Assembly (NCBI GenBank): GCA_964035545.1
Contig: OZ037772.1
Location: forward strand, 2,364,501 to 2,428,500
From: Bugula neritina
Taxonomy: Eukaryota; Bryozoa; Gymnolaemata; Cheilostomatida; Bugulidae
Length of the DNA stretch: 64,000 nt
Direction: 5' to 3'
The number at the start of each line of letters is the position of its first letter. Within the stretch, counting starts at the first letter, position 1. The position numbers and the translations under genes were made by a program. This document shows, in pieces, positions 15,757 through 34,292 of the stretch. The notes beneath the pieces are model-generated. The model searched no databases. It was not told where the DNA came from and saw nothing but the letters and a program-made list of their open reading frames with translations.

Positions 15757-16080
15757 TCACTTAGGAGCAGTAGTGGAGAACTTGAGATAGCCTAAGTTCT
15801 TTAATTTTATTATTCCATTTTGGTTTAAGGTGCGGGTTGAAGTTTTCAAAGTCCGCTATTAGGTACGATCTATGACGCTGCATTAGACATTTATATCCAA
15901 TGAATTAACGCAAAAGTTTTTCTATCCAATAGGAGTCCGCCGCAACTTATTTGAATCAAGCAGTGCTTGATCCTACCGTACCGCAACACCGGACAGGAAG
16001 CTCTGACATTTATAAAAATGGCTGATATTTGCTGTTACGGCGTACGATACGGTAAGTGTGAATAGGGGGTTAGTGGTTAA
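15757..16080. repeat. Dispersed repeat in the Polinton-bearing intron
   Basis: The first ~100 bp match the reverse complement of the right arm of the element at 12244-12402 (shared words AGCAGTAGTG, GAGATAGCCTA, GTTCTTTAAT, GGGTTGAA). The rest contains two GTACGATAC/CTACCGTACC-like words. It is probably a longer member of the same MITE family; its ends were not resolved. Confidence 0.4.
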
Positions 16081-16171
16081 TTAGCTTGATACTAACTTAC
16101 TGGGAGTTGTGTACTCTGAGTATAGTGACTGTGAAGTTGGATCTGGTAAACACTCAGTAAATATATAATTG

Positions 16172-16177
16172 TATATC
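16172..16177. repeat. Polinton target-site duplication, left
   Basis: TATATC directly before the left terminus, identical to 32328-32333. Six-base duplications are typical of Polinton integrases. Confidence 0.93.
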
Positions 16178-16349
16178 AGTAGTATAATAAGCGCCTCTAC
16201 GGCTATGGAAGTAAGCATCTCGTATCGGCCAATTTGTCAACATAGTGTAGACTCTATGGCTATGGAAATTAGCATCTCGTTAACTATGTGAGCATTGTAA
16301 GCCTTAAAGTTGACAGGTGGTAGCTATTAAATTTAGCTTACAGTGAATA
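16178..16349 (+). repeat. Polinton left terminal inverted repeat
   Basis: 172 bp matching the reverse complement of 32156-32327 with about five mismatches. Inside it, a 22-bp motif beginning GGCTATGGAA and ending AGCATCTCG occurs twice, about 58 bp apart. It could be a binding site for integrase or terminal protein. Confidence 0.95.
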
Positions 16350-16489
16350 CACCTTTTAAGCAATTACTGGAAGGTGGATCAATGATTAGTTTAGCTGTAT
16401 ATCCTTGTCACTAACTTTATAAGTAACAAAATTTACTCACTGAGCTGAGAGTTACACAGTTTGCGAGTCAAAATTTGTGTGTTTTTTGG

Positions 16490-16496
16490 TATAAAA
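16490..16496 (+). promoter_or_regulatory. TATA box upstream of the glycoprotein gene
   Basis: TATAAAA 62 bases before the first ATG of the next frame. The spacing fits a short 5' leader. Confidence 0.55.
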
Positions 16497-16557
16497 CATC
16501 ACCATTCTGAAATTTACATCATTCATCGTTATATGTTTTGAGCGCAAAGGTTAATCA

Positions 16558-17073
16558 ATGATGACAGAAGTAGAAAATTTTCCCTTGCAAAATAAAGATC
16601 CTATATTTAATGAACAAGATGCAAATGTGGCTGAAGACGAGTTAGATGTGGCGAGAAAAGTTGTACATAATCGGAATACACTCATTAATAAAGTTTCGAC
16701 CAGGAGAGATAATGCAAAGAATGACTGGAGCTTTTCAGAACTAAAAAAGAAACCTATCGCTATTATCCTGGTAGCACTATTTTTATCAATGAATGTAATC
16801 AACATAGTTATGAGCGGTAATGGTAGCTTTTCTGGAAAGATGTTTTCAACTAATTATACTTTAGACAGAATGTTCAATAACTGCACAAAACACTTCGAAA
16901 TGACTGACAATTTAAAACTAGCTGTTTGCAACACTAAAGTTCACGGGGATTTTATAACTATACAATATTTTTTCTTGAATGGTAATATGTCTCAGAGTGA
17001 TGCGTCTTCACCATCTAAGCTGTTAACAGTTTTGACTAAACACATTTTAGAAAATAATTATTACGGAATGTAA
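16558..17073 (+). CDS. Predicted type II membrane glycoprotein
   Basis: Unrecognised 171-residue protein, the first gene inside the left terminus. Residues 1-62 are polar and acidic. A KKK cluster at 63-65 precedes one hydrophobic segment at about 66-85, and the remainder is hydrophilic. By the positive-inside rule the N-terminus is cytoplasmic and residues 86-171 are lumenal or external. This outer part holds four N-glycosylation sequons (NGS, NYT, NCT, NMS) and two cysteines; none of the sequons precedes the membrane segment. That pattern supports a type II glycoprotein. Two adjacent ATGs (16558, 16561) are possible starts, and a TATA box lies upstream. Capsid genes in the same element suggest a non-enveloped particle, so a role in the host membrane (egress, exclusion or immune interaction) is as plausible as a virion role. 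No homologue is recognised. Confidence 0.65.
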   Translation: MMTEVENFPLQNKDPIFNEQDANVAEDELDVARKVVHNRNTLINKVSTRRDNAKNDWSFSELKKKPIAIILVALFLSMNVINIVMSGNGSFSGKMFSTNYTLDRMFNNCTKHFEMTDNLKLAVCNTKVHGDFITIQYFFLNGNMSQSDASSPSKLLTVLTKHILENNYYGM

Positions 17074-17285
17074 TGTTTTTCTGTATACAACTCATAGTTT
17101 ATAATAAAATGTTAAACGGAAACAAAAAACATGTCTTATGGTCCAACTCTATTTGCAACTCCATTTTTAAACTTATAACTTGACACAATTTTTCTGAAAC
17201 TCAAAAAGCAGAAAAAAGATAATTAACCTTATGCTAATGATGTCTGAAACTTTGACAAAGTAAAAATTAATATTAGCAAAAATTA

Positions 17286-17690
17286 GGAGGTGACACAGCG
17301 GTTTCCAATTTAATCAATGGGAAGTAAAACATAATAAAATCTTGTATAACCTACGTAAACTGATATAATATCGCCCAGTAATTAAACCCTAGATGGGTGG
17401 ATTGTATTTAAAATTTAACAACTCAATTCCTCATTATAGTTAGAAATCGGAAAATTTTTCAGCTAAGATGGATGACACGGCAATTTCTAATTTACGGATG
17501 GGAAGTGTCCTAGTTGAAATTTAAATACATATGCAACTGTTAAAACACGTATCACCTACGTAAACTGATATAATATTGCTTACGTGAGTAAACCTTAAAC
17601 CGGCAGATTACAATTAAAATGTTACCACCCAACTCCCTATAATAAAAAAAGGAAAACTTTTAGTTAAGATAAATTTCATTTACGTAGGAA
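17286..17690. repeat. Two diverged ~200-bp direct repeats
   Basis: Two adjacent similar units. Each contains a GGTGACAC or GATGACACGG word, then TGGGAAGT, then CTACGTAAACTGATATAATAT, then a run ending in a GGAAAA-TTT word before TAAGAT. They lie directly upstream of the next TATA box, so they may be regulatory. The rest of 17074-17769 has no gene. Confidence 0.6.
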
Positions 17691-17710
17691 TAAATTACAA
17701 AATCTCAGTA

Positions 17711-17717
17711 TATAAAA
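17711..17717 (+). promoter_or_regulatory. TATA box upstream of the three-exon gene
   Basis: TATAAAAGCC located 59 bases before the ATG at 17770. The same TATAAAAGC word recurs in the 109-bp array further right. Confidence 0.6.
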
Positions 17718-17769
17718 GCCTCGAAAAACTTCTATGTTTCATCGCATCTCAAACCATACAGCAAACACC

Positions 17770-19160
17770 ATGGGAGATTTAGTAAAGAAGTTAGAAGCTG
17801 AACTACTACAACTTAGAAGAAAAGTGGGAGAAACGAGTACTAGTTCCAGTACAGTTGAACCACTCAAAGCCTTAAAGCCTTCTAAAAGAAAAAAGTAAGT
17901 AATAATATATTTCTTTTGGATATCTCACCACTAACCTGTTAGAATATTATTAACATGAGAATGATTTTAGTTTACTATAGTGTTAGCTTTCTATAACTAT
18001 GCTAACCACTAACCTGTTAGAATATTATTAACATGAGAATGATTTTAGTTTACTATAGTGTTAGCTTTCTATAACTATGCTAACCACTAACCTGTTAGAA
18101 TATTATTAACACGAGAATGATTTTAGTTTACTATAGTGTTAGCTTTCTATAATTATGCTAACCTTTTTTATCAGCTAAAAGTAGCATCTTATTCATTACA
18201 ATAATATTATTTTAGTGAATCTAAGTCTGGTGAATCAAAGCGTAAGAAACCTGCATCAATTCCAAAGGTGGATGAGTCGACTAGCGAGCCATCTGTATCT
18301 ACCAGCGTGAGGTTAGTAGAATATCGTAAATCATCAATCATCTGTAAGACTCACAATTAATTATATTCACTTGACAAACTATAAACAAATAAACAGACGT
18401 TTGTCGTGTAATAAATTATATTACGTAGAATAAGTTACATATTATAAAACATAGTAATAGATCCCTCTTTTTTAGCGCTACTACCACTCCTTCCTCTATG
18501 ACGTCGTCTATTCCATCCGCTAGTTCCTCTACTGGTACAACTGTTACTACAAGTGATGATGCTGCCACTGCTGCTACCGCTGTCGATCAGAGCAAAACAC
18601 CTGCAAATGAAGAAGGTTGCTATCTAGTCCCTCTTAATTATGATCAATCACAATTATCCTACTACACTGACAATGACAAGATAATACCTACATTTAATCA
18701 TTCGCGTAAATTCTTTTTTAAATCCGATGAATTTATAGGTGAATTAAAAATATACGAGTCGAAAATTCCCAACAGTGGGCCATGTTTATATGTGAAAAAA
18801 TCTAAAAATCTAGAACTTTTTAAAACAAAGCTAGCTAAAATTTTTGAAAAAAAAGTTAAGTTTTACGGTAAAAGTGAAAATGCATCATTGCTGGGATGTT
18901 ATGTTGACGTGGTCAGAAACATGGAAGACGAAATTTGCGTAAATGCTGTAGTCAATGGACAACCTGTGTTATTAAATGTACAACAACTGTATGGAAAAGT
19001 GGGAAAATTGACATGCGTATTGAGAAGCGGTGTGATAAAAAAAGTAAACGAGGACTTATTTTGGTCACTAAATGTGACCGAAATCAAACTAGACGACATA
19101 TCACCGGATGAATATAATTATTTTAAACGATCGGAGCCGATCATAAAATTTTTAGGCTGA
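17770..19160 (+). CDS. Three-exon Polinton protein of unknown function
   Basis: Exons 17770-17894, 18216-18311 and 18476-19160 join with GT-AG borders and matching phases (phase 2 at both junctions). They give about 301 residues. The N-terminal 20 residues form a heptad-like leucine/lysine helix. A basic KPSKRKK stretch and a second KRKK cluster resemble nuclear localisation signals. A Ser/Thr/Ala-rich linker follows. The final ~190 residues are compact, with alternating hydrophobic residues as in a beta-rich fold, and match no family I recognise. The location before the polymerase, plus nuclear signals, would suit a DNA-binding or replication accessory protein, but this is inference. Introns in a Polinton gene show that it is expressed from the nucleus. 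Confidence 0.65.
17928..18165. repeat. 78-bp tandem repeat inside intron 1
   Basis: Three almost identical 78-bp units, each containing CTAACCTGTTAGAATATT and TTTACTATAGTGTTAGC. They lie within the first intron of the three-exon gene. The intron remains spliceable because donor and acceptor are outside the array. Confidence 0.85.
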
Positions 19161-19261
19161 CGGACTGACACTGACTCTCTAATATAAATATGTTGTATTT
19201 TTTGGTGATGGGGAAATATTTTATGTTGGTGAATGGAATACTTTTATGCGTATTATTGTTT

Positions 19262-20757
19262 AAAATATTGTTACAATATATCTCAATATATAATTAGTGA
19301 AAAGAAATTCAATACTATCTCTGCCACTATTAAACACAAAATGTATAAAAGCGAGTTGTTAATACACAACATCTATATATTACAATCTATCTCAATATAT
19401 ACTCAATGAAAAAAAATTCAATACTATCTCTGCCACTATTAAACACAAAATGTATAAAAGCGAGTTGTTAATATACAACATCTATATATTACAATCTATC
19501 TCAATATATACTCAATGAAAAGAAATTCAATACTAGCACCGCTACTATTGAATGTATAAAAGCGAGTTAATATACAACATCTATATATTACAATCTATCT
19601 CAATATATACTCAATGAAAAGAAATTCAATACTAGCACCGCTACTATTGAATGTATAAAAGCGAGTTAATATACAACATCTATATATTACAATCTATCTC
19701 AATATATACTCAATGAAAAGAAATTCAATACTATCTCTGCCACTATTAAACCTAAAATGTATAAAAACGAGTTGTTAATATACAATATCTATATACTTCA
19801 ATCTATCTCAATATATACTCGATGAAAAGAAATTCAATACTATCTCTGCCACTATTAAACACAAAATGTATAAAAGCGAGTTGTTAATACACAACATCTA
19901 TATATTACAATCTATCTCAATATATACTCGATGAAAAGAAATTCAATACTATCTCTGCCACTATTAAACCCAAAATGTATAAAAGCGAGTTGTTAATATA
20001 CAACTTCTATATATTACAATCTATCTCAATATATACTCGATGAAAAGAAATTCAATACTATCTCTGCCACTATTAAACACAAAATGTATAAAAGCGAGTT
20101 GTTAATATACAATATCTATATACTTCAATCTATTTCAATATATACTCGATGAAAAGAAATTCAATACTATCTCTGCCACTATTAAACACAAAATGTATAA
20201 AAGCGAGTTGTTAATATACAATATCTATATACTTCAATCTATCTCAATATATACTCGATGAAAAGAAATTCAATACTATCTCTGCCACTATTAAACACAA
20301 AATGTATAAAAGCGAGTTGTTAATATACAATATCTATATACTTCAATCTATTTCAATCTATTTCAATATATCTTAATATATACTCGATGAAAAGAAATTC
20401 AATACTATCTCTGCCACTATTAAACACAAAATGTATAAAAGCGAGTTGTTAATATACAATATCTATATACTTCAATCTATCTCAATATATACTCGATGAA
20501 AAGAAATTCAATACTATCTCTGCCACTATTAAACACAAAATGTATAAAAGCGAGTTGTTAATATACAATATCTATATACTTCAATCTATTTCAATCTATT
20601 TCAATATATCTTAATATATACTCGATGAAAAGAAATTCAATACTATCTCTGCCACTATTAAACACAAAATGTATAAAAGCGAGTTGTTAATATACAATAT
20701 CTATATACTTCAATCTATTTCAATCTATTTCAATATATCTTAATATATACTCGATGA
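19262..20757. repeat. 109-bp tandem array with TATA-box-like cores
   Basis: About 13 units of roughly 109 bp (some shortened to ~100 or extended by TTTCAATCTA duplications). Each carries ATGTATAAAAGCGAG; one unit reads TATAAAAACGAG. TATAAAAGC is also the putative TATA box of the three-exon gene, so the array looks like a multiplied core promoter upstream of the polymerase gene. It contains no coding sequence. The stretch from its end to 20969 shows nothing further. Confidence 0.88.
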
Positions 20758-20969
20758 AAAAGTTTAAAACACTGTTCTTCTGGCTCTGATGAAGAGTGTA
20801 GTAAACCTGACAATTCTATCTGATAATGCCACTATATGTCAAGTATATACATTTATGAGTGTATCTATTTACATATTATTAAACAATATCTCTATTTGAA
20901 GTAATTTTCTTTGATCCTTGCATCTCTATCAAGGTGGTTAAAAGAATAATTTATACTTCAATGTTTTAG

Positions 20970-23900
20970 AGAAATTCAAGTGCCACATATGTGGAAAAAG
21001 TTATAAACACAGGCAAAGTTTGAGCAGGCACCAAAGTATCCACAAAAAAAGATGTGATCAATGTAAACGGTTGTATGCACCGTGGAAAACAAATCACCGA
21101 TGTCATAACACGGTAATTTATCTACTGAGTGATACGATACGATATGAATATGATCATACTACATATACTATCACAACAAATTCAAAGCTAACTAATCAAT
21201 GGTAATCTTGGTAAATTTTAGAATACAAACTCAAACGGAGCAGAGAGAAGGTCAAACAAAAAGCCTCAAACCACATTCAGTGATGATATTGAACGCTATC
21301 AGTACAAAGGCATTTACGAAGAGGAAACAAATGCTCTATTGAGAAAAAACTGGTCAGCTATAAGAACGTACAACAGAAAAGGGAAATATTGTAGTGTCTA
21401 CAATCGATTGATAAAAGACAATGACATTATTTCAACTTTAAACAATAAAGAAGTGAAATTAATATTTCATGAACAAACATTGAAATTCAAATGCAATGCT
21501 TCAATTGGTTTTATCCTTTTGAATCAAAATGAGGAAAAGTTGAGATACTTTCATGCTAGCATGGGTGTTGATAAACTTTTTGCCTCGCCAAAGCTAATAG
21601 AGAATTTACGAGATTTCAATCAACTTGTGAAAGAAATGACAGAAAAAGATTTCATAGAGAAAGCAACTCAAAACAGGCCAAACACTTCGTGGAGTGTTCA
21701 CAAAATAACAAATATTACATTGTATGTATTTCCTATACCAGATCACAATATCGGATGCCCTATATCTCCATCTGAGAGAACAAAACAAAACAAAGCAATT
21801 ATAACAGCTAGCACTGATACAACTGGAAGACTGTATGAAGACAACTTATGTCTATTTAGAGCTCTAGCTTACTCAAAGGGGCAGCAGAGTACTTTAACAC
21901 AGTCTACGAAACATTATTATGAAATGTACTTGAATGGTATGAACAAACTGAATCAAGATTTTACAGGAGTGCCTTTATCAGACCTCAGATTTGCCGAGCG
22001 AATACTGAACTGTTCTATTAATGTGTACACCTTGGAATACAATACAGGGAAAGAAGCTAATGCAAAGCTTATGTACAGAGCCACTACCAATTACAAACAC
22101 AAACTAAACTTACATCTAGAGGAATCACATTTCAGTTGGATAAAAAACATCTCTCTTTACACAAAGTCATACAAATGTACATTTTGTAACAAGCTAATGA
22201 AATCAGTCAGAGCGTTGAATAGTCATAACACAGTATGTACAGCTGGTGAAACAAACCTTGTGTATCCCTACGGGGTGTATACTCCGTCTCGATCTATTTT
22301 CGAAAAGCTTGAAGATGTTCACATCACAGTTGATGAAAATAGACGACATTATCCGTACTTTGCTGTGTTTGATTGCGAAACGATGATGTCTTCGATTGAT
22401 TTACCTGCAAACACAAATACAATACACTATGAAAACAAACACAAGTTGGCTTGTATAAGTTTATGCTCAAACGTATCTGGCTATACACAACCAGTGAATT
22501 TCATGAATTCTGGAAATGAATACGAGCTGGTTGTGAAAATGATGGATTTCCTTACAAAGCTGTCTGAAGTATGCTACCAGAGATTGCTTGTTAGATACAA
22601 TGATGTGTTTAAAAAACTACGTGAAAAAGCTGACGAGTGTATCAAGAAAGAAATTGAAGCTAGTTGTAATAACAAAGCAGTGAACAATGTCAAAAAAAAG
22701 TTTGAATCACTAGAAAGTCAACTCCACTGTTATTTGAAAGACTTGATGGTCTTGTCTTTCAACGGCGCTGTCTATGACATTCCATTGATTCGACAACATA
22801 TGCTACGGTATCTATTAGAACAAAACCAAAAAGTTTTGTTTACAGCTAAAAAAGGAAACAAATACATGTGTATTCAAACGGAAAAATTAAGATTTCTAGA
22901 CGTGCTCAATTTCCTTGCTCCAGGGTTTTCGTACTCTGATTATCTAAAAGCTATGGGAGTTGAAGGGGAAAAATTCTTCTGGCCTTATGACATATTTACA
23001 TCTATGGAAGTGCTAGACAGAACAGAGTTCCCCGCTCATGAAGAGTTTTACAGTAAACTGAAAGGTAAAAACATATCCGTTCAGGAGTATGAAAAATGCA
23101 AAGAAATATGGGTACAGAAAGGAATGAAAACATTAAAAGACTTACTAGAGTACTACAATAACGAAGATGTCAGACACTTTATACCAGCATTAGAAAAGCA
23201 AAATGAATTTTACAAATCATGCAATCTTGATTTCAAGTCAGCTATATCTATACCAGGACTAGCGATTCAATATTTATTTCAATTAAAAGACCCAGAAGCG
23301 CCAATCTTTCTGTTTGGTGATAAGTTTAAAGACATTCACCAACTTATCAAATCAAACATTAGAGGTGGTTTATCAATTGTGTTCTCAAGGTATCAAGAAG
23401 CTGGCGCAACAAAGATTAAACCTGAATACTTTGGTGATCAAGCCAAAACTACACAAACATGTGTAGGGTATGATGCGACAAGTTTATATTTGAGTTGCCT
23501 AGTGAAAGATATGCCCACAGGAGCCTTTGTAAGAAGGCGGAGAGAAAATAGCTTTAGAATAGAAAAAAGCTACTATTCGGGTGAAAAAGCTACAGTATGG
23601 CTAAAATACATGTCAAAGCTGCTCGGAGTCAAAATTCAACACAAGTTTAATAGCACCGAACGTCGAATAGGTGGACGAAACATACCAGTCGATGGATACG
23701 CTCTGGCGAGTGATGGTAGTGAACTAGTGTTCAACTACTCAGGATGCTGGTTTCACGGACATCTATGCGACTATTGTCCAAATGGAAAGTTTAATAACAA
23801 AGAAAAAGATTTACAAAATCAAATAGACACATACAATACGCTGAAATATTTCCAAGATTTGGGTTACAGAGTCTACCATACTTGGGAGTGTGAATTTGAT

Positions 23901-25372
23901 AATTTGAAAAAGGAAAACAGTGATGTCAGTGAGTTCTGCTCAAATCTGGACTTCATTGTTGATTCAAGATACGTAATATCAGAAAGCAAAATACTAGAAG
24001 AAATCAAAAATGGTTCAATGTTTGGAATGGCTGAAGTTGATATAGAAACACCTGAAGACTTGAAAACAATATTTGCTGAATATCAACCTATACAAAAAAA
24101 TGTACTGATATCAAGGGATGACATAGGCCCACACATGAAACAATTTGCAGAACGAAATGGTTTACTAAAAAAGCCATCACGTACTTTAATCAGTAGCTAT
24201 TTCGGGAACAAAATCCTTTTGTCCACCCCGCTACTGCAATGGTACCTACAACACGGCTTAGTGGTTACAAAAGTATATCAAGTAATTCAATACAAGCCAT
24301 CAAAATGCTTCAAGATGTTTGGTGAAAAGGTAATGGAGGCTAGGAGAGCTGGTGACCTCGATTCCTCAAAGAAGATTATATCGGATTCATGCAAACTAAT
24401 AGGTATTTAGTAAATATTGACATGTTTAAACATAGCACTTATTCAATGGTTATTAATATGCAAATCACTTAAGCATCTAGCAAGAGCGATAACTTTTGCA
24501 TTGAATAATTACTCAATATATTTCAAAATAATCCACTTCGCTATATTTCAGGAAACTCTGCGTATGGCCGAACACTAGTCAACCTAGAGAGTCACACTGA
24601 TATCATATATTGTGATGCTGAAGAGACAAACATCTCAAGACTGGTAAACAATCCTAGATTTAACAGCTTACAAGAAATTGATTCTCAACTAGTTGAAATT
24701 GAATCACGAAAAGCTAAGATTAGACTCAATGTACCAGTACAAATTGGCTTTCAAGTATTAGAGTATGCAAAGCTAGCCATGTTGAAATTCTATTACGATT
24801 TCTTGTTAAAGTTTCTATCTCTAGACAGTTTTGCTTTGATTCAAATGGACACTGACTCAATGTATTTAGCTCTAAGTGAAAAAACTTTGTACCTAGCGGT
24901 TAAAAGTGATATGAGAAATGAATTTGAACAAGAACACACTAGTTGGATGTGTAGAGAATATTGCGATGAACACAAGTCACAATATTTTCAATGTATGTTT
25001 AACGGGCAAACCTGGAATCCATTAGACTGTTGTAAAGCTAGTGCCAAGTTCCACAAAAGATCTTTGGGGTTGTTTCACTGCGAAAATGTCTCCCGAGGTG
25101 TTGTAGCGCTTTGCTCCAAATGTTACTATTGTTTCGGGGAAGAACCTAAATACAGTTCAAAAGGTGTCAGTAAATTGCACAACAACTATACCGAAAAAGA
25201 TTACTTCGATGTATTGATAAATCAGAAAATTGCTTACGGTACGAACAAGGGTTTTCGAGTAAAAGGTGAAGAAATATTCACGTACGTTCAAAATCGAAAA
25301 GCTTTAAATTATTTTTACGGAAAGAGAATTGTGTCACAAGATCACGTGACAACCAAACCTACTTTACTGTAA
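20970..25372 (+). CDS. POLB: Protein-primed family B DNA polymerase
   Basis: Replicates the linear element. Exons are 20970-21112, 21222-24402 and 24552-25372; phases agree and borders are GT-AG. The first listed exon starts in mid-codon, so an upstream start exon exists but was not found. Order: a C-x2-C-x12-H-x3-H zinc finger with a CQC-type cluster (20985-21105); an OTU-protease-like motif DNLCLFRALA (21841) with partner HFSWI (22127); a C2HC finger (22174-22240); ExoI DCE (near 22370), ExoII (near 22765) and ExoIII YNNEDVRH (near 23155); polymerase motif A DATSLYLS (23472); motif B, split by the last intron; motif C DTDS (24849). The visible part gives about 1,380 residues, long for the family because of the N-terminal additions. 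Frames are open throughout, so it looks functional. Confidence 0.92.
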
Positions 25373-25453
25373 AAAAACTGTGTTCAGTTAGCGCGTTCAG
25401 TTAATTGGTATTTCACTGTTCGGTTGATAGGTCGCATCAATCAATATTCTACG

Positions 25454-25852
25454 ATGGAAAATTTATACCTATTACAGAAAAACGCTTATAATTATATATG
25501 GTACAAGCTTTTGAAAATGAGTAGACAACATTACGTTAACTATTGTATAACGCAAACCGTTTTGGACATGTACAATAAACATCAAAATTGGAGTGAGGAA
25601 GAAATAAATGAATTGGTCGAACTAGCCGAGGATATGTACGAGACTAACGGTTACGTTCAGTTTTGTAAAGTGGCAAAAGATTTGACTGATCCAAATATCT
25701 CAGCTATTCGCTTAGAAACAATATTTTTCTTGTGCGTGCAAATTTGCAAAATGTATATCGAGGCTGGAGAACACTTCGCAGTGAAATATTTTATTCAACA
25801 GATCCAATGGAACTTGGGAATAGCTCTCGAGAAACAAAACAATGTACAATAG
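25454..25852 (+). CDS. Small all-helical protein, Bcl-2-like candidate
   Basis: A 132-residue protein between POLB and the ATPase; ATG 25454 is the first in frame. It is predicted to be all-helical. The spacing of motifs resembles Bcl-2 family proteins, which regulate apoptosis at mitochondria. Residues 11-27 look like a BH4-type first helix. Residues 51-62 fit a BH3-like L-x3-A-E-D pattern. Residues 81-98 fit BH1, with Arg86 at the usual arginine position, then an aliphatic helix. Residues 118-130 fit BH2. The canonical BH1 Gly-Arg pair and a C-terminal membrane anchor are missing, which is common in viral relatives. Related adintovirus-type elements are reported to carry apoptosis regulators, which supports the idea. 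Sequence similarity is weak, so a structure comparison is needed. The alternative is an unrelated helical accessory protein. Confidence 0.45.
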   Translation: MENLYLLQKNAYNYIWYKLLKMSRQHYVNYCITQTVLDMYNKHQNWSEEEINELVELAEDMYETNGYVQFCKVAKDLTDPNISAIRLETIFFLCVQICKMYIEAGEHFAVKYFIQQIQWNLGIALEKQNNVQ

Positions 25853-25874
25853 TTTATTTTGTATATAATTGTGT

Positions 25875-25965
25875 ATATTTGCCTAAACTTGCCTAAACAT
25901 GCCTAAACATGCCTAAACATGCCTGAACTTGCCTAAACATGCCTGAACTTGCCTAAATCTATTTA
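25875..25965. repeat. 11-bp tandem repeat
   Basis: About eight copies of GCCTAAACATG, with variants CTTG and GAAC, in the gap between the helical protein and the ATPase. It contains no gene. Confidence 0.85.
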
Positions 25966-25974
25966 TACTTTTTT

Positions 25975-26700
25975 ATGCCTATTAATATTTTTGTACATTA
26001 CTTGATACAATTATTTGGGAATAAACTCTCGGAATATACAGTTAACATCATGAGCTTACCTTTCTACCATACATTTTCAGCGATTGTAGCTGGTCCTTCA
26101 AGGGCTGGTAAAACTCAGTGGGTAAGGAAATTGATTACCAACAGTCATACAATGATATCACCTCCACCTGAAAAAATAATATATTGTTATAGTGAGTGGC
26201 AGCCACTGTTTAGCTCATACAACAACGTTGAGTTTCATCAAGGTGTTATCGATATACAAGAATTAAACAAAAATATAAAAAACTTGATAATATTTGATGA
26301 TTTAATGAGTGAAATAGATCAGAATATTGAAAACATATTTACTAAGCACAGTCACCATCGCAACATAAGCGTAATATTTATAACACAGAATCTGTTTCAA
26401 GACAACTCTCACATGAGAACAATGTCTCGAAGCGCTTCTTATGTTGTTGTATTTAAAAACCCTAGAGACGTGAACCAGATATCCTATTTGGCAAGACAAA
26501 TGTTTCCTAAAAACCAGAGTAATTTTGTTGTTGAAGCGTTTCGAGACGCCACTTCTGTCCCCTTTGGGTACTTGGTTATAGACTACAGGCAAGAGACAGA
26601 AGACTATTTGCGCATTAGAACAGGTGTATTTCCGGGTGAGAAAACCTATATCTATTTGTCAAACAGAAACGCTACTTCATTACAAAGAAATGCAGCTTGA
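25975..26700 (+). CDS. ATP: FtsK/HerA-type packaging ATPase
   Basis: Predicted to pump element DNA into capsids, as in other double-jelly-roll viruses. The Walker A motif GPSRAGKT lies near 26092, and Walker B (LIIFDDL) near 26284. A conserved QN pair follows in the IFITQN sensor-like strand, and an Arg-rich segment comes after. The ATG at 25975 gives 241 residues. A start at 26050 removes 25 residues and begins closer to the typical family N-terminus, so it is an equally good choice. The next gene begins 14 bases downstream, in line with a compact late cluster. Confidence 0.92.
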   Translation: MPINIFVHYLIQLFGNKLSEYTVNIMSLPFYHTFSAIVAGPSRAGKTQWVRKLITNSHTMISPPPEKIIYCYSEWQPLFSSYNNVEFHQGVIDIQELNKNIKNLIIFDDLMSEIDQNIENIFTKHSHHRNISVIFITQNLFQDNSHMRTMSRSASYVVVFKNPRDVNQISYLARQMFPKNQSNFVVEAFRDATSVPFGYLVIDYRQETEDYLRIRTGVFPGEKTYIYLSNRNATSLQRNAA

Positions 26701-26714
26701 AGCTAACATAAATC

Positions 26715-27065
26715 ATGACCGCTAGAATTAAAAAACACGCCAAGACTCTAAGTTATTTAGCTGAATGTGACAAACACAACTGTAAAGCAATCATCAACGC
26801 AGCGGGTAGTGAACTGTTGAACTGTTTCTCAGATATTTGCTACAACGTATTAAAAGGCAAGGTGTCATTGTCACCTACTGAAGAAAACAACTTACGTAAA
26901 TACAAAAATATTTTAAGAAAGATTGCTGATAAAAAGAGTACACTGAAAACTAAAAAAACACTGGTACAGAAAGGAGGGTTTCTCTTGGCTCTTTTAGGAC
27001 CACTAATAGGAAGTGTTCTAGCACTACTAGCGAAAGGAATATTCAGCGGTTTTAGAAAAAGATGA
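26715..27065 (+). CDS. Conserved small Polinton protein with hydrophobic tail
   Basis: A 116-residue basic protein. The N-terminal two-thirds is helical and lysine-rich, and resembles a small protein family that recurs next to the ATPase in animal Polintons and adintoviruses. Residues about 91-110 contain a KGG followed by a hydrophobic, Gly/Leu-rich segment, ending in FRKR. The layout suggests a virion core or membrane-active peptide similar in style to adenoviral pX or pVI, but the role is inferred. Its stop codon overlaps the next start (ATGA at 27062-27065). Confidence 0.6.
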   Translation: MTARIKKHAKTLSYLAECDKHNCKAIINAAGSELLNCFSDICYNVLKGKVSLSPTEENNLRKYKNILRKIADKKSTLKTKKTLVQKGGFLLALLGPLIGSVLALLAKGIFSGFRKR

Positions 27066-27787
27066 ATTCGCAAAGCGCTAGAAAATTCTTATTAGTGGAT
27101 GCCGCGGATCTAAAACACAACTCATTTGTAAATGCTGATGTCAGCAAAAATAATGATTATCAACAAGTCGAGAGAAACAAACCTTTGATTACTAAAGAAC
27201 TATTTGCCGTAGATAAGCTAATGAGTGAAATCTTAAATGACAACACGCTATCAGAAAATGAGAAAGTAACTGCTTATAACAACGCGTTAACTAATTATCA
27301 AGAGTTGAAAACTACTACTTATAAAAAAATATCTAGCACAAGGTTGCCTACTTTATCAAAGAATAATGAACCACAACTAAAAGAAACAGAAAGTCTTACA
27401 TCTTATAACCCACTACTAGCTATCCCTCAAAGATTTAAAACAAAGGCGAGTCAACTTTGGGATATACTGAAAAAAGATGGTAAAGTTTCTGTAAATGATG
27501 CGGGGCAGGTAACTATTAACGGCAACCAACTACGCGGAAGCAATTTATCTGATCTATTAAATCTTGCGGTTAATAGTCAACTGAAAGGTAAAACATTGGA
27601 AGGGTGGAAAGAATTTAGACAAGTATTAATTGATTACAATGTACCCAAACTACTCATTAATCAAAACGTTATCGAAGAGAAATCTAAAAATAGAAGAGAG
27701 TCTAGTAAATTGTCATCAGGCGAGTGGGATCCATACGATGGCAAGGCGAAAACGAAAAAAGCAAAATCCAGACTCCAGCTATACTGA
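27062..27787 (+). CDS. Conserved Polinton protein, unknown function
   Basis: 241 residues. The start overlaps the previous stop by four bases. The N-terminal half is acidic and helical. A central stretch reads like a small module seen in many Polintons next to the integrase (W-D-I-L near the middle, then a GSNLSDLL motif). The C-terminus is basic and ends KAKSRLQLY. It overlaps the integrase start by 50 bases. No enzymatic motif is visible; a structural or DNA-associated role is possible. Confidence 0.6.
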   Translation: MNSQSARKFLLVDAADLKHNSFVNADVSKNNDYQQVERNKPLITKELFAVDKLMSEILNDNTLSENEKVTAYNNALTNYQELKTTTYKKISSTRLPTLSKNNEPQLKETESLTSYNPLLAIPQRFKTKASQLWDILKKDGKVSVNDAGQVTINGNQLRGSNLSDLLNLAVNSQLKGKTLEGWKEFRQVLIDYNVPKLLINQNVIEEKSKNRRESSKLSSGEWDPYDGKAKTKKAKSRLQLY

Positions 27788-28865
27788 TAAACTAATTCGA
27801 GACACCTATTTCAATATTTCTAAACCAGCCGGATTTGGTAGTAAAGCAAAATTATACAAATCATTAAAAGGCAAAGTAAGCAAGGGTGCAATTGATAGAT
27901 GGCTTGAAAAAACTGACAGCTATAACCTACATAAACCTTTGCGAAAAAACTTTCCCAGACGAAAGTATATTGTATCAGGTATTAATGCCATGTGGCAAAT
28001 TGATTTAACAGATCTCCAACAGTTTTCATCCGAAAATAATGGATTCAAGTATATACTATTAAGCATTGACACATTCAGTCGTAAAGCCTACGGTGTACCA
28101 CTCAAAACTAAATCTGGTTTAGAAGTGAGTAGAGCTATGAGGGAGATTATAGAAAACGAAAACAACAACACTCCACCAGAAATGATTTTATCAGATAGAG
28201 GCAAAGAATTCTTTAACCCTCAATTTAAAGCATTAATGAAAGAATATAACATAAACCACTTTTCATCCAACAATCAAGAAATTAAAGCATCCATGGTTGA
28301 AAGACTGCAAAGAACACTAAAGGCTAAATTGTTTAAATATTTTACTCATCAAAACAGTCACAGATATCTTGACATTCTCAATGATCTAATATCATCATAC
28401 AATAACTCGAAACACTCGGCTCATAACTCAACACCTAACGATGTGACAGTTAACAATCAAGAAGAAATTTGGCATAGACTATACACAGATAGTCAGAGTG
28501 GTCAAACTAACAAACTAAAATACAATGTTGGAGATCTCGTTAGAATATCAAAATATAGTACAGTATTTAAAAAAGGATACCTTCCTTCTTGGAGCGAAGA
28601 AATCTTTACCATAGCGAAAATCCACACTACTAATCCTCCAGTGTATTCTCTCGCGGATGACAGCGGTGATCAGCTAGAAGGAACATGGTATGAACCGGAA
28701 TTACAGAAAGTAAACACCAAGAGCAACACCTATAAAATAGAGTCAATTGTTGGTCAGCGTACTGTAAATGGTAAAAAACAATTTCTTGTAAGGTGGGCTG
28801 GATATCCGCCAAGTTTTGACTCGTATGTTGATAAAAGAGATGTAATTTTTAACTATAAGAATTAG
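27738..28865 (+). CDS. INT: Retroviral-type integrase with chromodomain
   Basis: Inserts the element and makes the 6-bp target duplication. From the ATG at 27738 it has 375 residues. The N-terminus is strongly basic. The DDE triad is visible as Asp89, Asp153 and Glu188, a D-x34-E spacing, inside an RNase H fold region at about 80-200. A small beta domain follows at about 255-300. A chromodomain at about 336-372 (YKIESIVG and LVRWAGY motifs) presumably tethers integration to chromatin. An upstream in-frame alternative start exists, but it would overlap the previous gene extensively; the chosen ATG is the first one placed after the conserved part of that gene. Confidence 0.94.
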   Translation: MARRKRKKQNPDSSYTDKLIRDTYFNISKPAGFGSKAKLYKSLKGKVSKGAIDRWLEKTDSYNLHKPLRKNFPRRKYIVSGINAMWQIDLTDLQQFSSENNGFKYILLSIDTFSRKAYGVPLKTKSGLEVSRAMREIIENENNNTPPEMILSDRGKEFFNPQFKALMKEYNINHFSSNNQEIKASMVERLQRTLKAKLFKYFTHQNSHRYLDILNDLISSYNNSKHSAHNSTPNDVTVNNQEEIWHRLYTDSQSGQTNKLKYNVGDLVRISKYSTVFKKGYLPSWSEEIFTIAKIHTTNPPVYSLADDSGDQLEGTWYEPELQKVNTKSNTYKIESIVGQRTVNGKKQFLVRWAGYPPSFDSYVDKRDVIFNYKN

Positions 28866-28898
28866 ATAATAAACTTATATGTTGTCACTCTTACAAAG

Positions 28899-29669
28899 AT
28901 GCGCGTTGTTTTACCTAGTAATGCTTCGTTGAAGCATTTTCCAAAAAATAGTCTTTCAGTATACACAGTTCAATTGCCTCAAAGTTTAGATTTTACGGAT
29001 GGCTCTTACGAGATCGGATTGAGTGAGATACAATTTTATAAATCATGGTTCAATGTGAAACAGTGCAGCATAACCTTAAAAGTAAATGAAGCTGAAGAAA
29101 CAGTGCATCTAGATGACGGTTACTACAAATCAGATAAAAAGCTAATACAATCTATCAATCAAGCAATAAATGACCAGTGTTTAAATCTGAAAGTAAAATT
29201 TAATTTCTATTACAACGATGTCAATAAAAATTTTTATGTCATTGCTGAAGATGTTAGAGGTTGCTCTATAGACATCACATACTCACCATCTCTTGAGAAA
29301 ATACTTAATGTGCAGGAAGAAAAAATGGAGATAAAATCAATGACCGATGGCACAATTTTGGTCAAGTACAATACTCCAATAAGATTACATACAATATTTA
29401 ACCTGATGGTGTATACAGATGTAGCAGAATCTAGTATTGTTGGAGATACTCAGGCTCAACTACTAAGAGTTGTAGGAGTCGAGGATGGTCATTGGAGGTT
29501 GCAGTCCACTAACTTTAACAATGTACAGTACTGCAAAATAAATAAAACGCATGTTTCGAGTGTATCAATTTATATATACACGGATTACGGTGAAAGAGTA
29601 CCATTCACGCATGGACGTACAGTGGTAACGGTAGATATTCGAAAAGTTAAACCTATAAACCTAATATGA
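28899..29669 (+). CDS. Minor capsid (penton) protein
   Basis: A 256-residue protein with the N-terminal hallmark of Polinton minor capsid proteins: VVLPSN near the start, a YTVQLP strand, then an EIGLSEIQF motif. The single jelly-roll protein is thought to form the pentameric vertices of the particle. It lies immediately after INT (33-base gap) and ends with ATGA, overlapping the next start by four bases, in the order seen in other animal Polintons. The frame is intact. Confidence 0.85.
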   Translation: MRVVLPSNASLKHFPKNSLSVYTVQLPQSLDFTDGSYEIGLSEIQFYKSWFNVKQCSITLKVNEAEETVHLDDGYYKSDKKLIQSINQAINDQCLNLKVKFNFYYNDVNKNFYVIAEDVRGCSIDITYSPSLEKILNVQEEKMEIKSMTDGTILVKYNTPIRLHTIFNLMVYTDVAESSIVGDTQAQLLRVVGVEDGHWRLQSTNFNNVQYCKINKTHVSSVSIYIYTDYGERVPFTHGRTVVTVDIRKVKPINLI

Positions 29670-30097
29670 GAATAATTCCATTCGATTGTGATGCCGCATC
29701 AAATAGCTATAGACAGTTATATGAACAATCAGGAAATGGAATGATTCCAATATTTTCAGGAGAAAAATATCAAACAGGATACGGTTTAGGGAGCATATTT
29801 GGTAACATACTCAAAGCAGCATTGCCTGTTGTAAAACAAGGTGTAAAAAGTTTAGGAAAGACAGCAATAAATACTGGTCTAAACATTGCCAGAGATAGTT
29901 TATCCGGTAAACCATTCAGAGAGTCAATCAAAGATAACGTCAACAGCGCGGCTGGAGAGGTTATTACTAAAGGTATTACATACGTCACCAACAGAAATCG
30001 AAATAAAAAAAGGAAGCGTCAGACTAACAGAGTTACTTCTTCCAAGTCTTCAAAGGTGAAAAGACGTAGGGTTACTAAACGCGATATCTTTTCATAG
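29666..30097 (+). CDS. Basic pVI/core-like virion protein
   Basis: 143 residues; the ATG overlaps the stop of the minor capsid gene. Residues about 36-60 contain YGLGSIFGNIL, an amphipathic glycine-containing helix similar to the membrane-active part of adenovirus pVI-type proteins. The C-terminal 35 residues are rich in Lys/Arg (KKRKRQ, KVKRRRV), a nuclear signal or DNA-binding tail. A protein of this size and layout recurs between minor and major capsid genes in Polintons. It is a likely substrate of the adjacent protease. Assignment rests on position and composition. Confidence 0.6.
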   Translation: MRIIPFDCDAASNSYRQLYEQSGNGMIPIFSGEKYQTGYGLGSIFGNILKAALPVVKQGVKSLGKTAINTGLNIARDSLSGKPFRESIKDNVNSAAGEVITKGITYVTNRNRNKKRKRQTNRVTSSKSSKVKRRRVTKRDIFS

Positions 30098-30108
30098 AAT
30101 ACTATACT

Positions 30109-31419
30109 ATGAGTTTCATAATGGAACATAGCTGCCTCGCTGGCAAACCCGAATTAGATTTATTTTCTACACTACCTACTCAAGCATCAATCGAAGAAGG
30201 ATATCACGTAGAACATATGCCCACAACCTCATTGAATGATGAGGGACCTATAAAGTTCTCAATCTCTGGTGATTCGAACAACTACCTTGACCTCAATTCA
30301 AGCTATCTATTATTAGAGGTGAAAATAACAAAAGCTGACGGTACGGATCTTGATGCTCAAGGTGATGCGGCTCCTATAAACCTTTTGGGTCACACATTAT
30401 TTCAACAAGTAGAAATTATGCTAAATGATGTAGTTATTTCCAACGCTTCTAATCTCTACCACTACAGAGCTCTTATAGAAACTTTACTAAGTTACTCCGA
30501 TGAAGCTAAAAAGTCACAACTATCAATGTCACTCTACTCAAAGGATACACCCGGAAAAATGGATCACATTGGTGGTGATAATGAAGGCTTGGAAGCTAGA
30601 AGACGAATTACGGGGCAGAGTAAAACTGTGCAGTTAATTGTTAGACCGCACGCTGACATATTCTTTCAAAGACGATTCATTTTAAACGGAGTAGACATGA
30701 AATTAAAGTTTGTGAGGAATCACAACAGCTTAGTGCTAATGGCTGGTGAAAACTCTACTTGCAAACTAAAAATCCTAAACGCATCTTTTTTCCTTCGAAA
30801 AGTTAAAATCAATAGCGGAATACAATTAAAGCACATTGAAAATTTAGACAAGAAACTATTGCCAGCCGTTTATCCTATCAGAAGAGTTGATATGAAGTCA
30901 TTCAATATCGCATTGGGTTCATTGTCTTGGAACGAAGAAAATTTATTTCACGGTATTCTGCCTAAGAGAATAGTTATAGGTATTGTAAACGCTGGTGCAT
31001 TCGAAGGCGCTTACAATTTGAATCCTTTCAACTTTCAGCACAAACATTTAAAATATACAAACCTAGTCGTTGACGGGAAACAAGTACCTCAGAAGGCATT
31101 GGTTTCAGACTACACAAATCATAATACTCTAAGAAACTATTTTACGCTCTTGGAATCAACGGGAAAGGTGTTCAACAATGGCGGAATAGATATAAATAGA
31201 GAGGAATACGAGAAAGGTTACAGTCTATTGGCCTTTGATTTAACTCCTGACCTAGATTTGAGCACTTGCTTTCATTTGATGAAGCGAGGAACAATAAGAT
31301 TAGAGCTAAAGTTTTCTCAGGCTCTTGACACACCCGTTAATGTGATTGTCTACTCCGAATTTGATTCTGGTATAAAAATTGATAAGAATAGAGCGGTACT
31401 TACAAATTTCTACGCGTGA
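30109..31419 (+). CDS. MCP: Double jelly-roll major capsid protein
   Basis: A 436-residue protein of the PRD1-adenovirus lineage, the hexon-like building block of the predicted icosahedral particle. The N-terminus has the family pattern: a short leader, then LFSTLPTQ, then strands with LDLNSSYLLLEVKI and NLLGHTLFQQVEI. Further strands alternate along the length, as expected for two jelly rolls. ATG 30109 is used; a second ATG at 30121 could also serve. The stop TGA overlaps the next start (TGATG). The frame is intact. Confidence 0.92.
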   Translation: MSFIMEHSCLAGKPELDLFSTLPTQASIEEGYHVEHMPTTSLNDEGPIKFSISGDSNNYLDLNSSYLLLEVKITKADGTDLDAQGDAAPINLLGHTLFQQVEIMLNDVVISNASNLYHYRALIETLLSYSDEAKKSQLSMSLYSKDTPGKMDHIGGDNEGLEARRRITGQSKTVQLIVRPHADIFFQRRFILNGVDMKLKFVRNHNSLVLMAGENSTCKLKILNASFFLRKVKINSGIQLKHIENLDKKLLPAVYPIRRVDMKSFNIALGSLSWNEENLFHGILPKRIVIGIVNAGAFEGAYNLNPFNFQHKHLKYTNLVVDGKQVPQKALVSDYTNHNTLRNYFTLLESTGKVFNNGGIDINREEYEKGYSLLAFDLTPDLDLSTCFHLMKRGTIRLELKFSQALDTPVNVIVYSEFDSGIKIDKNRAVLTNFYA

Positions 31420-31958
31420 TGAATTCTAAAGAAATATATTCCATTCTTGAGAACGATGAGTGGGTGAAAAAGATGAACTTCATCGGTGTATTTCCAGTCG
31501 ATAGAATACCTAGTAGTAGTTTGACGGATTATCCTTGCTGTGGAGTTGTAAACACTAAACCTCACAATCATCCGGGAGAGCACTGGGTGATGTTTCTAAA
31601 GACAGAAAATAACACAGGAGTTTATTTCGACTCTTTTGGAAGTGGTCTTTACAACATGCCAGAGGTTGCTGCTATATTTGATTCAGTAGACTCTTGGCAA
31701 TTTAGTAGCACTCAGCTACAATCTGTATTTTCTACAGTTTGCGGACAATACTGTATTTTTGTGTTAACGCATTTAGCCAGAGGTTTCTCACTAGAACACA
31801 TTATATCTTTAATAAATGATTGTTGTGATACATACGCGAATGATGCTTTTATATTTAATTACATTAATCAAAAATATAGTAATTTTTTAAATAAAGAACT
31901 AGAAATTGTAGACCTACCTTTTATTTTTGAACAAGCTTCTTATCCTGTTAAAATTTAA
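31419..31958 (+). CDS. PRO: Adenain-type cysteine protease
   Basis: Matures virion proteins. From ATG 31419 the protein has 179 residues. The catalytic elements are visible in the expected order: His55 in HWVMFL, Asp71 in YFDSFG, and Cys112 in CGQYCIF. Gln residues upstream of the Cys can supply the oxyanion hole. Length and motif spacing match C5-family proteases of adenoviruses and Polintons. The true ATG overlaps the capsid gene stop. Confidence 0.93.
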   Translation: MNSKEIYSILENDEWVKKMNFIGVFPVDRIPSSSLTDYPCCGVVNTKPHNHPGEHWVMFLKTENNTGVYFDSFGSGLYNMPEVAAIFDSVDSWQFSSTQLQSVFSTVCGQYCIFVLTHLARGFSLEHIISLINDCCDTYANDAFIFNYINQKYSNFLNKELEIVDLPFIFEQASYPVKI

Positions 31959-32155
31959 AGCTGTAATATTCTATTATGACATTTTTTCAAGAAAATAAAC
32001 TCATGGTGAAAAGAAATCTCTTTCTGGTTATTGAATATTATACGGAGTGTAGAATTTACCAAAGTGACAACAGTGATATAACGAGGCTAACTAATCATAG
32101 ATCAATGTTTTAGTACGTGAGATTCTGACTACGTAGTTAGTTAAAAGGTGTAATT
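31959..32155. other. 3' spacer of the Polinton
   Basis: Short AT-rich spacer between PRO and the right terminus. AATAAA at about 31995 could be the polyadenylation signal for the late genes. No gene seen. Confidence 0.5.
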
Positions 32156-32327
32156 TATTCACCATAAGCTAAATTTAATAGCTACCACCTGTCAACTTTA
32201 AGGCTTACAATGCTCACATAGTTAACGAGATGCTAATTTCCATAGCCATAGAGTCTACACTACGTTGACAAATTGGTCGATGCGAGATGCTTACTTCCAT
32301 AGCCGTAGAGGCGCTTATTATACTACT
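32156..32327 (-). repeat. Polinton right terminal inverted repeat
   Basis: Inverted match of 16178-16349 with about five substitutions. Ends ATACTACT and contains the same pair of internal 22-bp motifs. Confidence 0.95.
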
Positions 32328-32333
32328 TATATC
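32328..32333. repeat. Polinton target-site duplication, right
   Basis: TATATC, identical to the six bases before the left terminus. Confidence 0.93.
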
Positions 32334-32521
32334 AATACTCAATACTGTGAGAGACTATAAAGTCTGGTAACTATTGTAGGTGACACTGCAGTGGCTGTCC
32401 ACCCTGAAGACGGCCGATACAAACACTTACACGGGAAATTCGTGAGACATCTTTTTGCTGACAGGAGAATACCTATTGTGGCTGACGACTTTGTGGAGAT
32501 GGAGTTTGGGACAGGTGCTCT

Positions 32522-33495: not shown

Positions 33496-34008
33496 GTACT
33501 TGTATTATATATTATGTATAGTATATAATATATTAGTACTGTATAGTATATAATATATTAGTACTGTATAGTATGTATATTAGTATTGTATAGTATATAT
33601 ATTAGTACTGTGTATAGTATATAATATATTAGTACTGTAAAGTATACCTATAGTATAGTATATCTATAGCATAGTATGTCTATAGTATAGTATGTCTATA
33701 GTATAGTATATCTATAGCATAGTATATCTATAGCATAGTATATCTATAGTATAGTATATCTATAGTATAGTATATCTATAGCATAGTATATCTATAGTAT
33801 AGTATATCTATAGCATAGTATATCTATAGCATAGTATATCTATAGCATAGTATATCTATAGTATAGTATATCTATAGCATAGTATATCTATAGTATAGTA
33901 TATCTATAGCATAGTATATCTATAGCATAGTATATCTATAGCATAGTATATCTATAGCATAGTATATCTATAGCATAGTATATCTATAGCATAGTATGTA
34001 TACTGCAG
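33496..34008. repeat. 16-bp tandem array
   Basis: After a TATAGTATATAATATATTAG-like lead-in, about 23 copies of TATCTATAGCATAGTA (C/T variants) fill the intron up to the next exon. Confidence 0.9.
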
Positions 34009-34292
34009 GTAGTAGAATCAGGCAAGCTAAAGATCATACCAGACTATCACACAGTCACTTGGTACAAATGGCTGAGGAACTCCAGGGACTGGTGTATCTC
34101 CAGACAGCTATGGTGGGGGCACAGAATACCAGCCTACTTTGTGCAGATCCAGGGGCAACCTAAGGCTGAGGTATGACTCATTCTTCATCTTGTCTTGTGT
34201 TATTTACAGAAAGCAAGCGGGTTTAGCACACACCTAATATTTACCACAGACTATGTTTATGTTGATAAACTATGAATTCCCTTTAATGTGGC

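What the first reader, a model, noticed from the sequence alone, without database searches (positions are those of the whole stretch)
16178..32327. Apparently intact 16-kb Polinton in an intron of a tRNA synthetase copy
Seen: a perfect TATATC duplication, 172-bp inverted termini with about five differences, and open frames for polymerase, integrase, ATPase, protease and both capsid proteins, all on one strand. Known: this set defines Polintons/adintovirus-like elements. Inferred: a recent insertion that may still be mobile or form particles. It inserted in sense orientation into a synthetase copy that is itself decaying, so host damage may have preceded or been tolerated by a second copy.
Basis: partly seen in the sequence, partly recalled or inferred. 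Interest (0 to 1): 0.85.

Follow-up and report, generated by a model that had tools for sequence, protein, structure and literature searches.

The report
Young capsid-coding Polinton with spliced polymerase
A 16-kb virus-like jumping element (Polinton) sits in one copy of a much-duplicated host gene; near-identical sister copies show that it spread recently, and its replication enzyme appears to need RNA splicing, which is not what has been reported for intact elements of this kind.

Summary
The element at 16178-32327 is real: 172-bp inverted termini (5 mismatches), a perfect 6-bp duplication (TATATC) and a Polinton gene set on one strand. It is interrupted at 24403-24551 by a GT-AG stretch inside catalytic motif B (KLIG|NSxYG), and again at 21113-21221. 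An older relative has interruptions at the same places, and its motif-B stretch no longer aligns with the window's, so they are most likely spliceosomal introns, not lesions. A published survey calls intact vertebrate Mavericks intronless. The assembly holds six further near-identical copies on contigs C3, C4, C5 and C8 (0.10-0.53% pairwise differences), each with its own 6-bp duplication; 7 of 7 paralogous host sites examined are clean empty sites. Capsid genes of the seven copies vary mainly at silent positions (MCP 14 silent, 3 replacement; penton 7 and 3). Predicted folds match virophage and chlorovirus MCPs and mavirus and adenovirus pentons. A host synthetase exon occurs at 38 places on one contig; the interrupted copy is broken. 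Terminal identity is no clock here, because left and right termini differ in 6 of 7 young copies. Verdict: a young, probably recently mobile Polinton with a spliced polymerase. Transcripts and particles are untested.

The parts
16172..16177 (.). target-site duplication TATATC, left
   Evidence: single TATATC in 7 of 7 empty sites examined
32328..32333 (.). target-site duplication TATATC, right
16178..16349 (+). left terminal inverted repeat, begins AG
32156..32327 (-). right terminal inverted repeat, 5 mismatches in 172
16558..17073 (+). 171-aa protein with one membrane span (by eye), function unknown
   Evidence: no stop or gap in 7 of 7 young copies
17927..18163 (.). 78-bp tandem repeat, 3 copies
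18498..19160 (+). 220-aa protein, function unknown; read in the window only
19271..20760 (.). tandem repeat array, 109-bp unit
20972..21112 (+). exon with C2H2 zinc finger, N-terminal part of the polymerase gene (start approximate); its own upstream exon with the start codon was not found
   Evidence: PF00096 E 5.5e-6; in the family-B copy finger region and polymerase share one frame
21113..21221 (+). putative intron, GT-AG, 109 nt, phase 0
   Evidence: by eye at the same place in the older C5 copy
21222..24402 (+). polymerase exon: exonuclease motifs and polymerase motif A (motif roles recalled)
   Evidence: 37% identity over 1050 columns to the uninterrupted family-B polymerase
24403..24551 (+). 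putative intron, GT-AG, 149 nt, phase 1, inside motif B
24552..25372 (+). polymerase exon: rest of motif B, and motif C (DTDS)
   Evidence: 40% over 220 columns to the family-B polymerase
25424..25852 (+). 142-aa protein, function unknown
25975..26700 (+). packaging ATPase, Walker A and B
   Evidence: PF02456 Adeno_IVa2 22.0 bits, cut-off 21
26715..27065 (+). 116-aa protein with hydrophobic C-terminus (by eye)
27062..27787 (+). 241-aa protein, function unknown
27630..28865 (+). integrase, D,D(34)E, and C-terminal chromodomain
   Evidence: PF00665 E 2.5e-14, PF00385 E 1.8e-6
28899..29669 (+). penton (minor capsid) protein
   Evidence: AlphaFold model pLDDT 92.9; Foldseek best 6g41 mavirus penton E 5.8e-12, TM-score 0.46 by query length
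29666..30097 (+). 143-aa basic protein, possibly a core or cement protein (recalled resemblance)
   Evidence: no family match
30109..31419 (+). double jelly-roll major capsid protein
   Evidence: AlphaFold model pLDDT 85.4; Foldseek best 3j26 Sputnik E 2.1e-17, TM-score 0.67 by query length; 901 relatives
31416..31958 (+). adenain-like cysteine protease
   Evidence: PF00770 15.4 bits, below cut-off 21.3; adenain E 0.2; H, D, Q, C in order

Best explanation
This is a young Polinton/Maverick: a linear DNA element that (inferred from its gene set) copies itself with its own family-B polymerase, inserts with a retroviral-type integrase that makes 6-bp duplications, and carries a capsid kit. Shown: seven near-identical copies at seven different sites, each with its own TSD, and empty paralogous sites for this one. 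Shown: variation among the copies is mainly silent in MCP, penton, protease and integrase. Inferred: the copies descend from sources that needed working capsid genes, so the element propagated recently at least partly through particles. Inferred from sequence: its polymerase gene carries two introns (one inside catalytic motif B) that the host spliceosome must remove, so replication requires nuclear transcription and splicing.
For: Anatomy. Six further copies with full-length stop-free MCP frames at 99% and polymerase exon-2 frames given as 100%; pairwise differences 0.10-0.53% over about 8.85 kb; 9 of 9 copies with own TSD; 7 of 7 examined paralogous sites, of 30 candidates, empty with one TATATC. 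Selection: pooled Ka/Ks MCP 0.04, penton 0.10, protease 0.06, ATPase 0.06, polymerase exon 2 0.05, pairs not independent; variable codons, silent/replacement: MCP 14/3 (p 2.9e-6), penton 7/3 (0.0042), protease 5/1 (0.0047), integrase 5/1 (0.0052). Introns: same GT-AG boundaries in 9 of 9 close copies read; in the C5:9.0-Mb copy (57% in exon-2 protein) GT-AG at the same codon and phase, 121 instead of 149 nt, no more alike inside than shuffled sequence (50%; 20 shuffles mean 50%, maximum 60%) while exons keep 61% and 60%; the same stretch in two close relatives of that copy (L087, L088); the family-B copy and a C1 copy run through there; the second interruption recurs at the same place, by eye; no Rfam match in 16000-32500, so no known self-splicing intron.
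Against: No transcript, particle or extrachromosomal form could be looked at. 3 of 91 gene-segment reads (13 segments x 7 copies) carry a stop, in two of the six sister copies. No significant silent bias in polymerase exon 1 (9 silent, 14 replacement; p 0.17 and 0.30 for its two parts), exon 2 (3/1, p 0.056), 143-aa (3/1, p 0.06), ATPase (2/2), 116-aa, 142-aa or 171-aa. Against the two older copies the ratios for polymerase, 142-aa and ATPase are 0.18-0.40, weaker than among the young ones. PF03175 (DNA_pol_B_2) was not matched by the window's own polymerase; the link runs through a 37-40% relative whose locus passes the cut-off but which hmmscan did not list. The start-codon exon was not found. 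Protease evidence is weak by score. The intron comparison rests in effect on one older lineage, as L038, L087 and L088 are close to each other.
Confidence: 0.85

Rival explanations
1. The polymerase is broken, not spliced: all copies inherited a disabled polymerase and were moved by another element's polymerase in trans. The genome holds other Polinton clades that could supply it.
For: The interruption is present in all 9 close copies read; other clades with long uninterrupted polymerase frames (for example 1218-1393 aa) co-reside; polymerase exon 1 shows no silent bias.
Against: The interruption has exact GT and AG ends that rejoin the conserved motif in phase, and place, phase and ends recur in copies about 57% alike although the inside has diverged. 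Exon 2 downstream has 3 silent to 1 replacement codon (p 0.056) and pooled Ka/Ks 0.05. A second interruption behaves likewise.
Confidence: 0.08
2. A purely intracellular transposon: capsid genes are passengers, and copies arise by transposition only within the germline.
For: Copies were seen in one genome only; no particle evidence; two pattern scans of IMG/VR found no contig that encodes a relative of the MCP.
Against: Silent bias in MCP and penton is at least as strong as in polymerase; passengers should drift. MCP relatives at 60-77% lie on unnamed contigs, several of 15-18 kb, though these may be host-derived or repeat-bounded.
Confidence: 0.25
3. Assembly artefact or segmental duplication: the seven copies are one insertion duplicated with its flanks, or an allelic duplicate.
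For: The window lies in a heavily duplicated region.
Against: Seven different TSDs and flanks on contigs C3, C4, C5 and C8; the 7 paralogous units examined lack the element.
Confidence: 0.02

Closest known systems
Polinton/Maverick elements of animals (Kapitonov and Jurka 2006, recalled; vertebrate survey PMC8097293, passages read; capsid genes PMC4028283, passages read)
   Same: about 16 kb, TIRs, 6-bp TSD, PolB, RVE integrase, ATPase, adenain-like protease, DJR MCP, penton. PMC8097293 also reports strong purifying selection on core genes of fish Mavericks and takes it as evidence for particles, so that argument is not new.
   Different: polymerase gene split by two conserved GT-AG stretches; PMC8097293 states that no introns were seen in genes of intact elements. 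Integrase carries a chromodomain (known in the group from recall, not checked).
Polinton-like viruses of protists (PMC12220804 and PMC12721341, passages read)
   Same: capsid-coding integrated DNA elements; introns do occur there: PMC12220804 reports group I self-splicing introns, in cryptophytes within a short gene upstream of the MCP gene
   Different: those are self-splicing, not in polymerase in the passages read; here GT-AG ends and no Rfam match. PMC12721341 saw interrupted regions without GT-AG boundaries and read them as decay.
Adintoviruses
   Same: gene set and size as recalled
   Different: no phylogenetic placement done here; no free virus shown
Mavirus and Sputnik virophages
   Same: penton and MCP folds; integrase and PolB in mavirus (recalled)
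   Different: they depend on giant viruses of protists (recalled); the host here looks like an animal; identity in the fold matches only 9-15%

Membership tests
Polinton/Maverick | long terminal inverted repeats | tested here: met
   172 bp, 5 mismatches
Polinton/Maverick | 6-bp target-site duplication | tested here: met
   9 of 9 copies with both ends read
Polinton/Maverick | RVE-type integrase | tested here: met
   PF00665 E 2.5e-14; D,D(34)E
Polinton/Maverick | family-B DNA polymerase | tested here: met
   37% and 40% to a relative whose locus passes PF03175's cut-off; motifs by eye. Against: the window's own polymerase was not matched by PF03175, nor the relative in hmmscan
Polinton/Maverick | protein-primed replication (terminal protein) | not testable with these tools
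   no biochemical data
Polinton/Maverick | packaging ATPase | tested here: met
   PF02456 22.0 bits over cut-off 21
Polinton/Maverick | adenain-like cysteine protease | tested here: inconclusive
   PF00770 15.4 bits below cut-off; adenain E 0.2; catalytic residues in order
Polinton/Maverick | double jelly-roll major capsid protein | tested here: met
   model pLDDT 85.4; Foldseek E 2.1e-17 to Sputnik MCP. By sequence only PF16903 Capsid_N at 14.7 bits, below cut-off 24; no capsid in the PDB profile search
Polinton/Maverick | single jelly-roll penton | tested here: met
   model pLDDT 92.9; Foldseek E 5.8e-12 to mavirus penton, TM-score 0.46
Polinton/Maverick (reported property of intact vertebrate elements, not a defining one) | genes without introns | tested here: not met
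   two GT-AG interruptions in polymerase, also in an older lineage
Adintovirus | phylogenetic placement with adintoviruses; virion | not tested
   no tree built; no particle data

The most novel reading that the evidence does not exclude
A circulating virus-like Polinton clade whose replication is gated by host splicing: the intron cuts the polymerase's catalytic motif, so the element can only copy its DNA after nuclear splicing, possibly only in some cell types, and it has recently been spreading through capsid-dependent cycles in an invertebrate.
Probability: 0.35. Interest if true: 0.7.

Novelty: new variant of a known kind. Interest (0 to 1): 0.5.

Why it matters
Whether animal Polintons make particles is an open question. 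Seven copies less than 0.6% apart, with capsid genes that vary mainly at silent sites, and empty sister sites give a concrete system in which transcription, splicing, insertion polymorphism and particles can be looked for. A conserved intron inside the polymerase active-site motif would tie replication of such an element to the host spliceosome; the papers whose passages I read do not describe this.

Tried and rejected
TIR divergence as an age clock: rejected, since left and right TIR differ by a 26-nt indel in 6 of 7 young copies, while the window and the older C9 copy lack it at both ends and the older C6 copy has it at both. A first alignment of copies was wrong because minus-strand loci had not been turned; redone. 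Self-splicing intron: the Rfam gathering scan of 16000-32500 found nothing. Viral relatives in IMG/VR: two MCP pattern scans, none. PHROGs found nothing, NCBIfam only transposases for the integrase, and sequence-only PDB searches gave zinc fingers and weak Vsr matches for polymerase. A sigma-70 promoter scan was run and is not meaningful for this host. The host could not be named: a TRIM-associated host exon hit 44 unnamed proteins, 41 from JGI and 3 from another source; the nearest organism named among the 120 MCP relatives listed, of 901, is the bryozoan Watersipora (65%). Papers: searches for Polinton with sponge, with Maverick and intron, with spliceosomal intron, with adintovirus, with purifying selection, with bryozoan, with splicing and polymerase gene, and with PolB and exon gave no report of introns in a Polinton polymerase in the listings; passages were read of PMC8097293, PMC4028283, PMC6431247, PMC12721341, PMC12220804 and PMC2836005, no paper whole. 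A search for amplified valyl-tRNA synthetase returned nothing. The library lacks most subscription papers.
Full report
Observation. The window is G000:C8:2364501-2428500 of a 215.8-Mb, 295-contig assembly, a eukaryote with RING and B-box exons beside the element. The element runs from 16178 to 32327, flanked by TATATC, with 172-bp TIRs that differ at 5 positions. The 13 frames of at least 100 aa with a start codon all lie on the + strand. Integrase (PF00665, plus a chromodomain) and ATPase (PF02456) pass Pfam cut-offs. By sequence the penton has no family match and the MCP only a sub-threshold one (PF16903, 14.7 bits), but AlphaFold models from alignments of 27 and 25 sequences (pLDDT 85.4 and 92.9) match Sputnik, PBCV-1 and mavirus MCPs and mavirus and adenovirus pentons (TM-scores 0.67 and 0.46 for the best hits, by query length). 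The protease is weak by score, with the four catalytic residues in order (residue roles recalled).

Polymerase. The frame 21222-24410 ends just after KLIG, and the frame 24509-25372 carries NSAYGRT and MDTDSMY. Between them lies 24403-24551, GT...AG, phase 1. All 9 close copies read share it. A copy at C5:9.0 Mb, 57% alike in exon-2 protein, has GT...AG at the same codon and phase, 121 nt long; its inside is no more like the window's than shuffled letters (50% against a mean of 50% and a maximum of 60% in 20 shuffles), while flanking exons stay 61% and 60% identical. Two copies close to that one (L087, L088) carry the same stretch, whereas the C6 family-B copy and a C1 copy run through without it. 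A second GT...AG stretch, 21113-21221, separates a C2H2 zinc-finger exon from the polymerase frame, which has no ATG before residue 114. In the family-B copy the finger region and polymerase share one frame; in the C5 copy, whose finger exon has decayed, donor and acceptor lie at the same place, by eye. Rfam finds no self-splicing intron. I conclude that the polymerase is spliced (inferred; no RNA seen). PMC8097293 states that intact vertebrate Mavericks have no introns (passage). The listings show no report to the contrary; group I introns are known in protist Polinton-like viruses (PMC12220804, passage).

Copies and age. The MCP search of the own assembly gave 76 matches (lower bound): the window and six others full-length at 99-100% without stops, older fragments, 2 near-full-length at 32%, and 22 near-full-length stop-free frames at 23-25%. 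So at least three Polinton clades share this genome. The six sisters lie on C3, C4 (two), C5 and C8 (two), with TSDs AGCATT, TATATA, GATTGG, AAGGTC, AATGAA and CATGTC; two older copies (C9, C6) have ACTGCT and AATTTC. Pairwise differences among the seven over about 8.85 kb are 0.10-0.53%; the window differs from the rest by 0.47-0.52%. Without a named host and rate I give no years. Incompatible site patterns among copies hint at recombination; not tested further.

Selection. Pooled over 21 pairs (not independent), Ka/Ks is 0.04 for MCP, 0.10 penton, 0.06 protease, 0.06 ATPase, 0.05 polymerase exon 2, 0.28 for the 3' part of exon 1; against the two older copies ratios for polymerase, 142-aa and ATPase are 0.18-0.40. 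Counting variable codons once, silent/replacement are MCP 14/3 (p 2.9e-6), penton 7/3, protease 5/1, integrase 5/1 (p 0.004-0.005), 241-aa 6/5 (p 0.049), polymerase exon 1 9/14 (p 0.17 and 0.30), exon 2 3/1 (p 0.056), 143-aa 3/1 (p 0.06), ATPase 2/2; total 57/37 against 24-29% silent expected per gene with no selection. 142-aa, 116-aa and 171-aa are not significant. Of 91 segment reads, 3 hold a stop and none a gap. Not read in the sisters: the 220-aa gene, the zinc-finger exon, and the ends of the 116-aa and integrase genes. PMC8097293 made the same argument for fish Mavericks.

Insertion site. A ValRS exon from the window (33979-34173) has 40 matching rows: 39 on C8, two of them parts of one copy, so 38 places between 0.15 and 4.5 Mb, the window included, and one distant match on C2. 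The 338-nt left flank matches 31 rows on C8 over at least 325 nt, the window included (40 of 562 candidates scored). I examined 7 of the 30 others: all have one TATATC and an uninterrupted intron. Thus the element entered one unit of an amplified region. The window's synthetase copy has lost 5 bp in a later exon against one paralogue.

Termini. Left TIRs of all 7 young copies lack a 26-nt stretch between short direct repeats; right TIRs of 6 of 7 have it; the window's right TIR lacks it and shares further letters with older copies. So the ends are not made identical at each cycle, but exchange or deletion happens.

Relatives. MCP: 901 proteins at E <= 0.001, best 77%; of the 120 listed most are unnamed, several on contigs of 15-18 kb. 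Penton: 37, best 94% on a contig of at most 2.3 kb from JGI. These contigs were not fetched, so whether they are free viruses or host pieces is open.

Verdict. A Polinton by the core features tested, with protease inconclusive and polymerase assigned through a relative; recently multiplied; with a polymerase that most likely needs splicing. New variant of a known kind.

Noticed in passing
window 13602-35544 and 42515-43297; C8 0-4.75 Mb: A giant duplicated region: a ValRS exon at 38 places on C8 and a 261-aa exon beside RING and B-box exons with 138 matching rows, 70 of them on C8 below 4.75 Mb, others in clusters on C3 and C2.
   Followed up: partly
C8:268563-4457646, 14 places: 63-bp stretches like the start of the TIR (86-90%) occur at 14 places, all on C8, on the strand opposite to nearby ValRS copies where compared by eye: probably an old Polinton end carried along in the amplified unit.
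   Followed up: partly
own genome, 22 places listed: A distant Polinton clade has 22 near-full-length stop-free MCP frames (23-25% identity to the window's); polymerase frames of about 1218 aa at similar distance are.
   Followed up: no
G000:C20:32946-35576: A ValRS match with 18 TAG and 8 TAA inside one part and 7 TAG and 2 TAA in the other: probably a contaminant contig with reassigned stop codons.
   Followed up: no
C6:7950132-7979401: An older copy of the family spans 29.3 kb between its own TSDs, so something has been inserted in it.
   Followed up: no
window 52609-64000: 17-bp satellite TATAACATAATATACTG, over 660 copies to the window's end.
   Followed up: no
window 1450-6534: Gypsy-like retrotransposon frames: gag-like and a 1192-aa pol frame (by eye).
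   Followed up: no
window 15840-16072: About the first 233 nt of the left flank also occur on C1, C3, C4, C9 and at 13.3 Mb on C8, with short inverted partners nearby: probably a small palindromic transposon.
   Followed up: no
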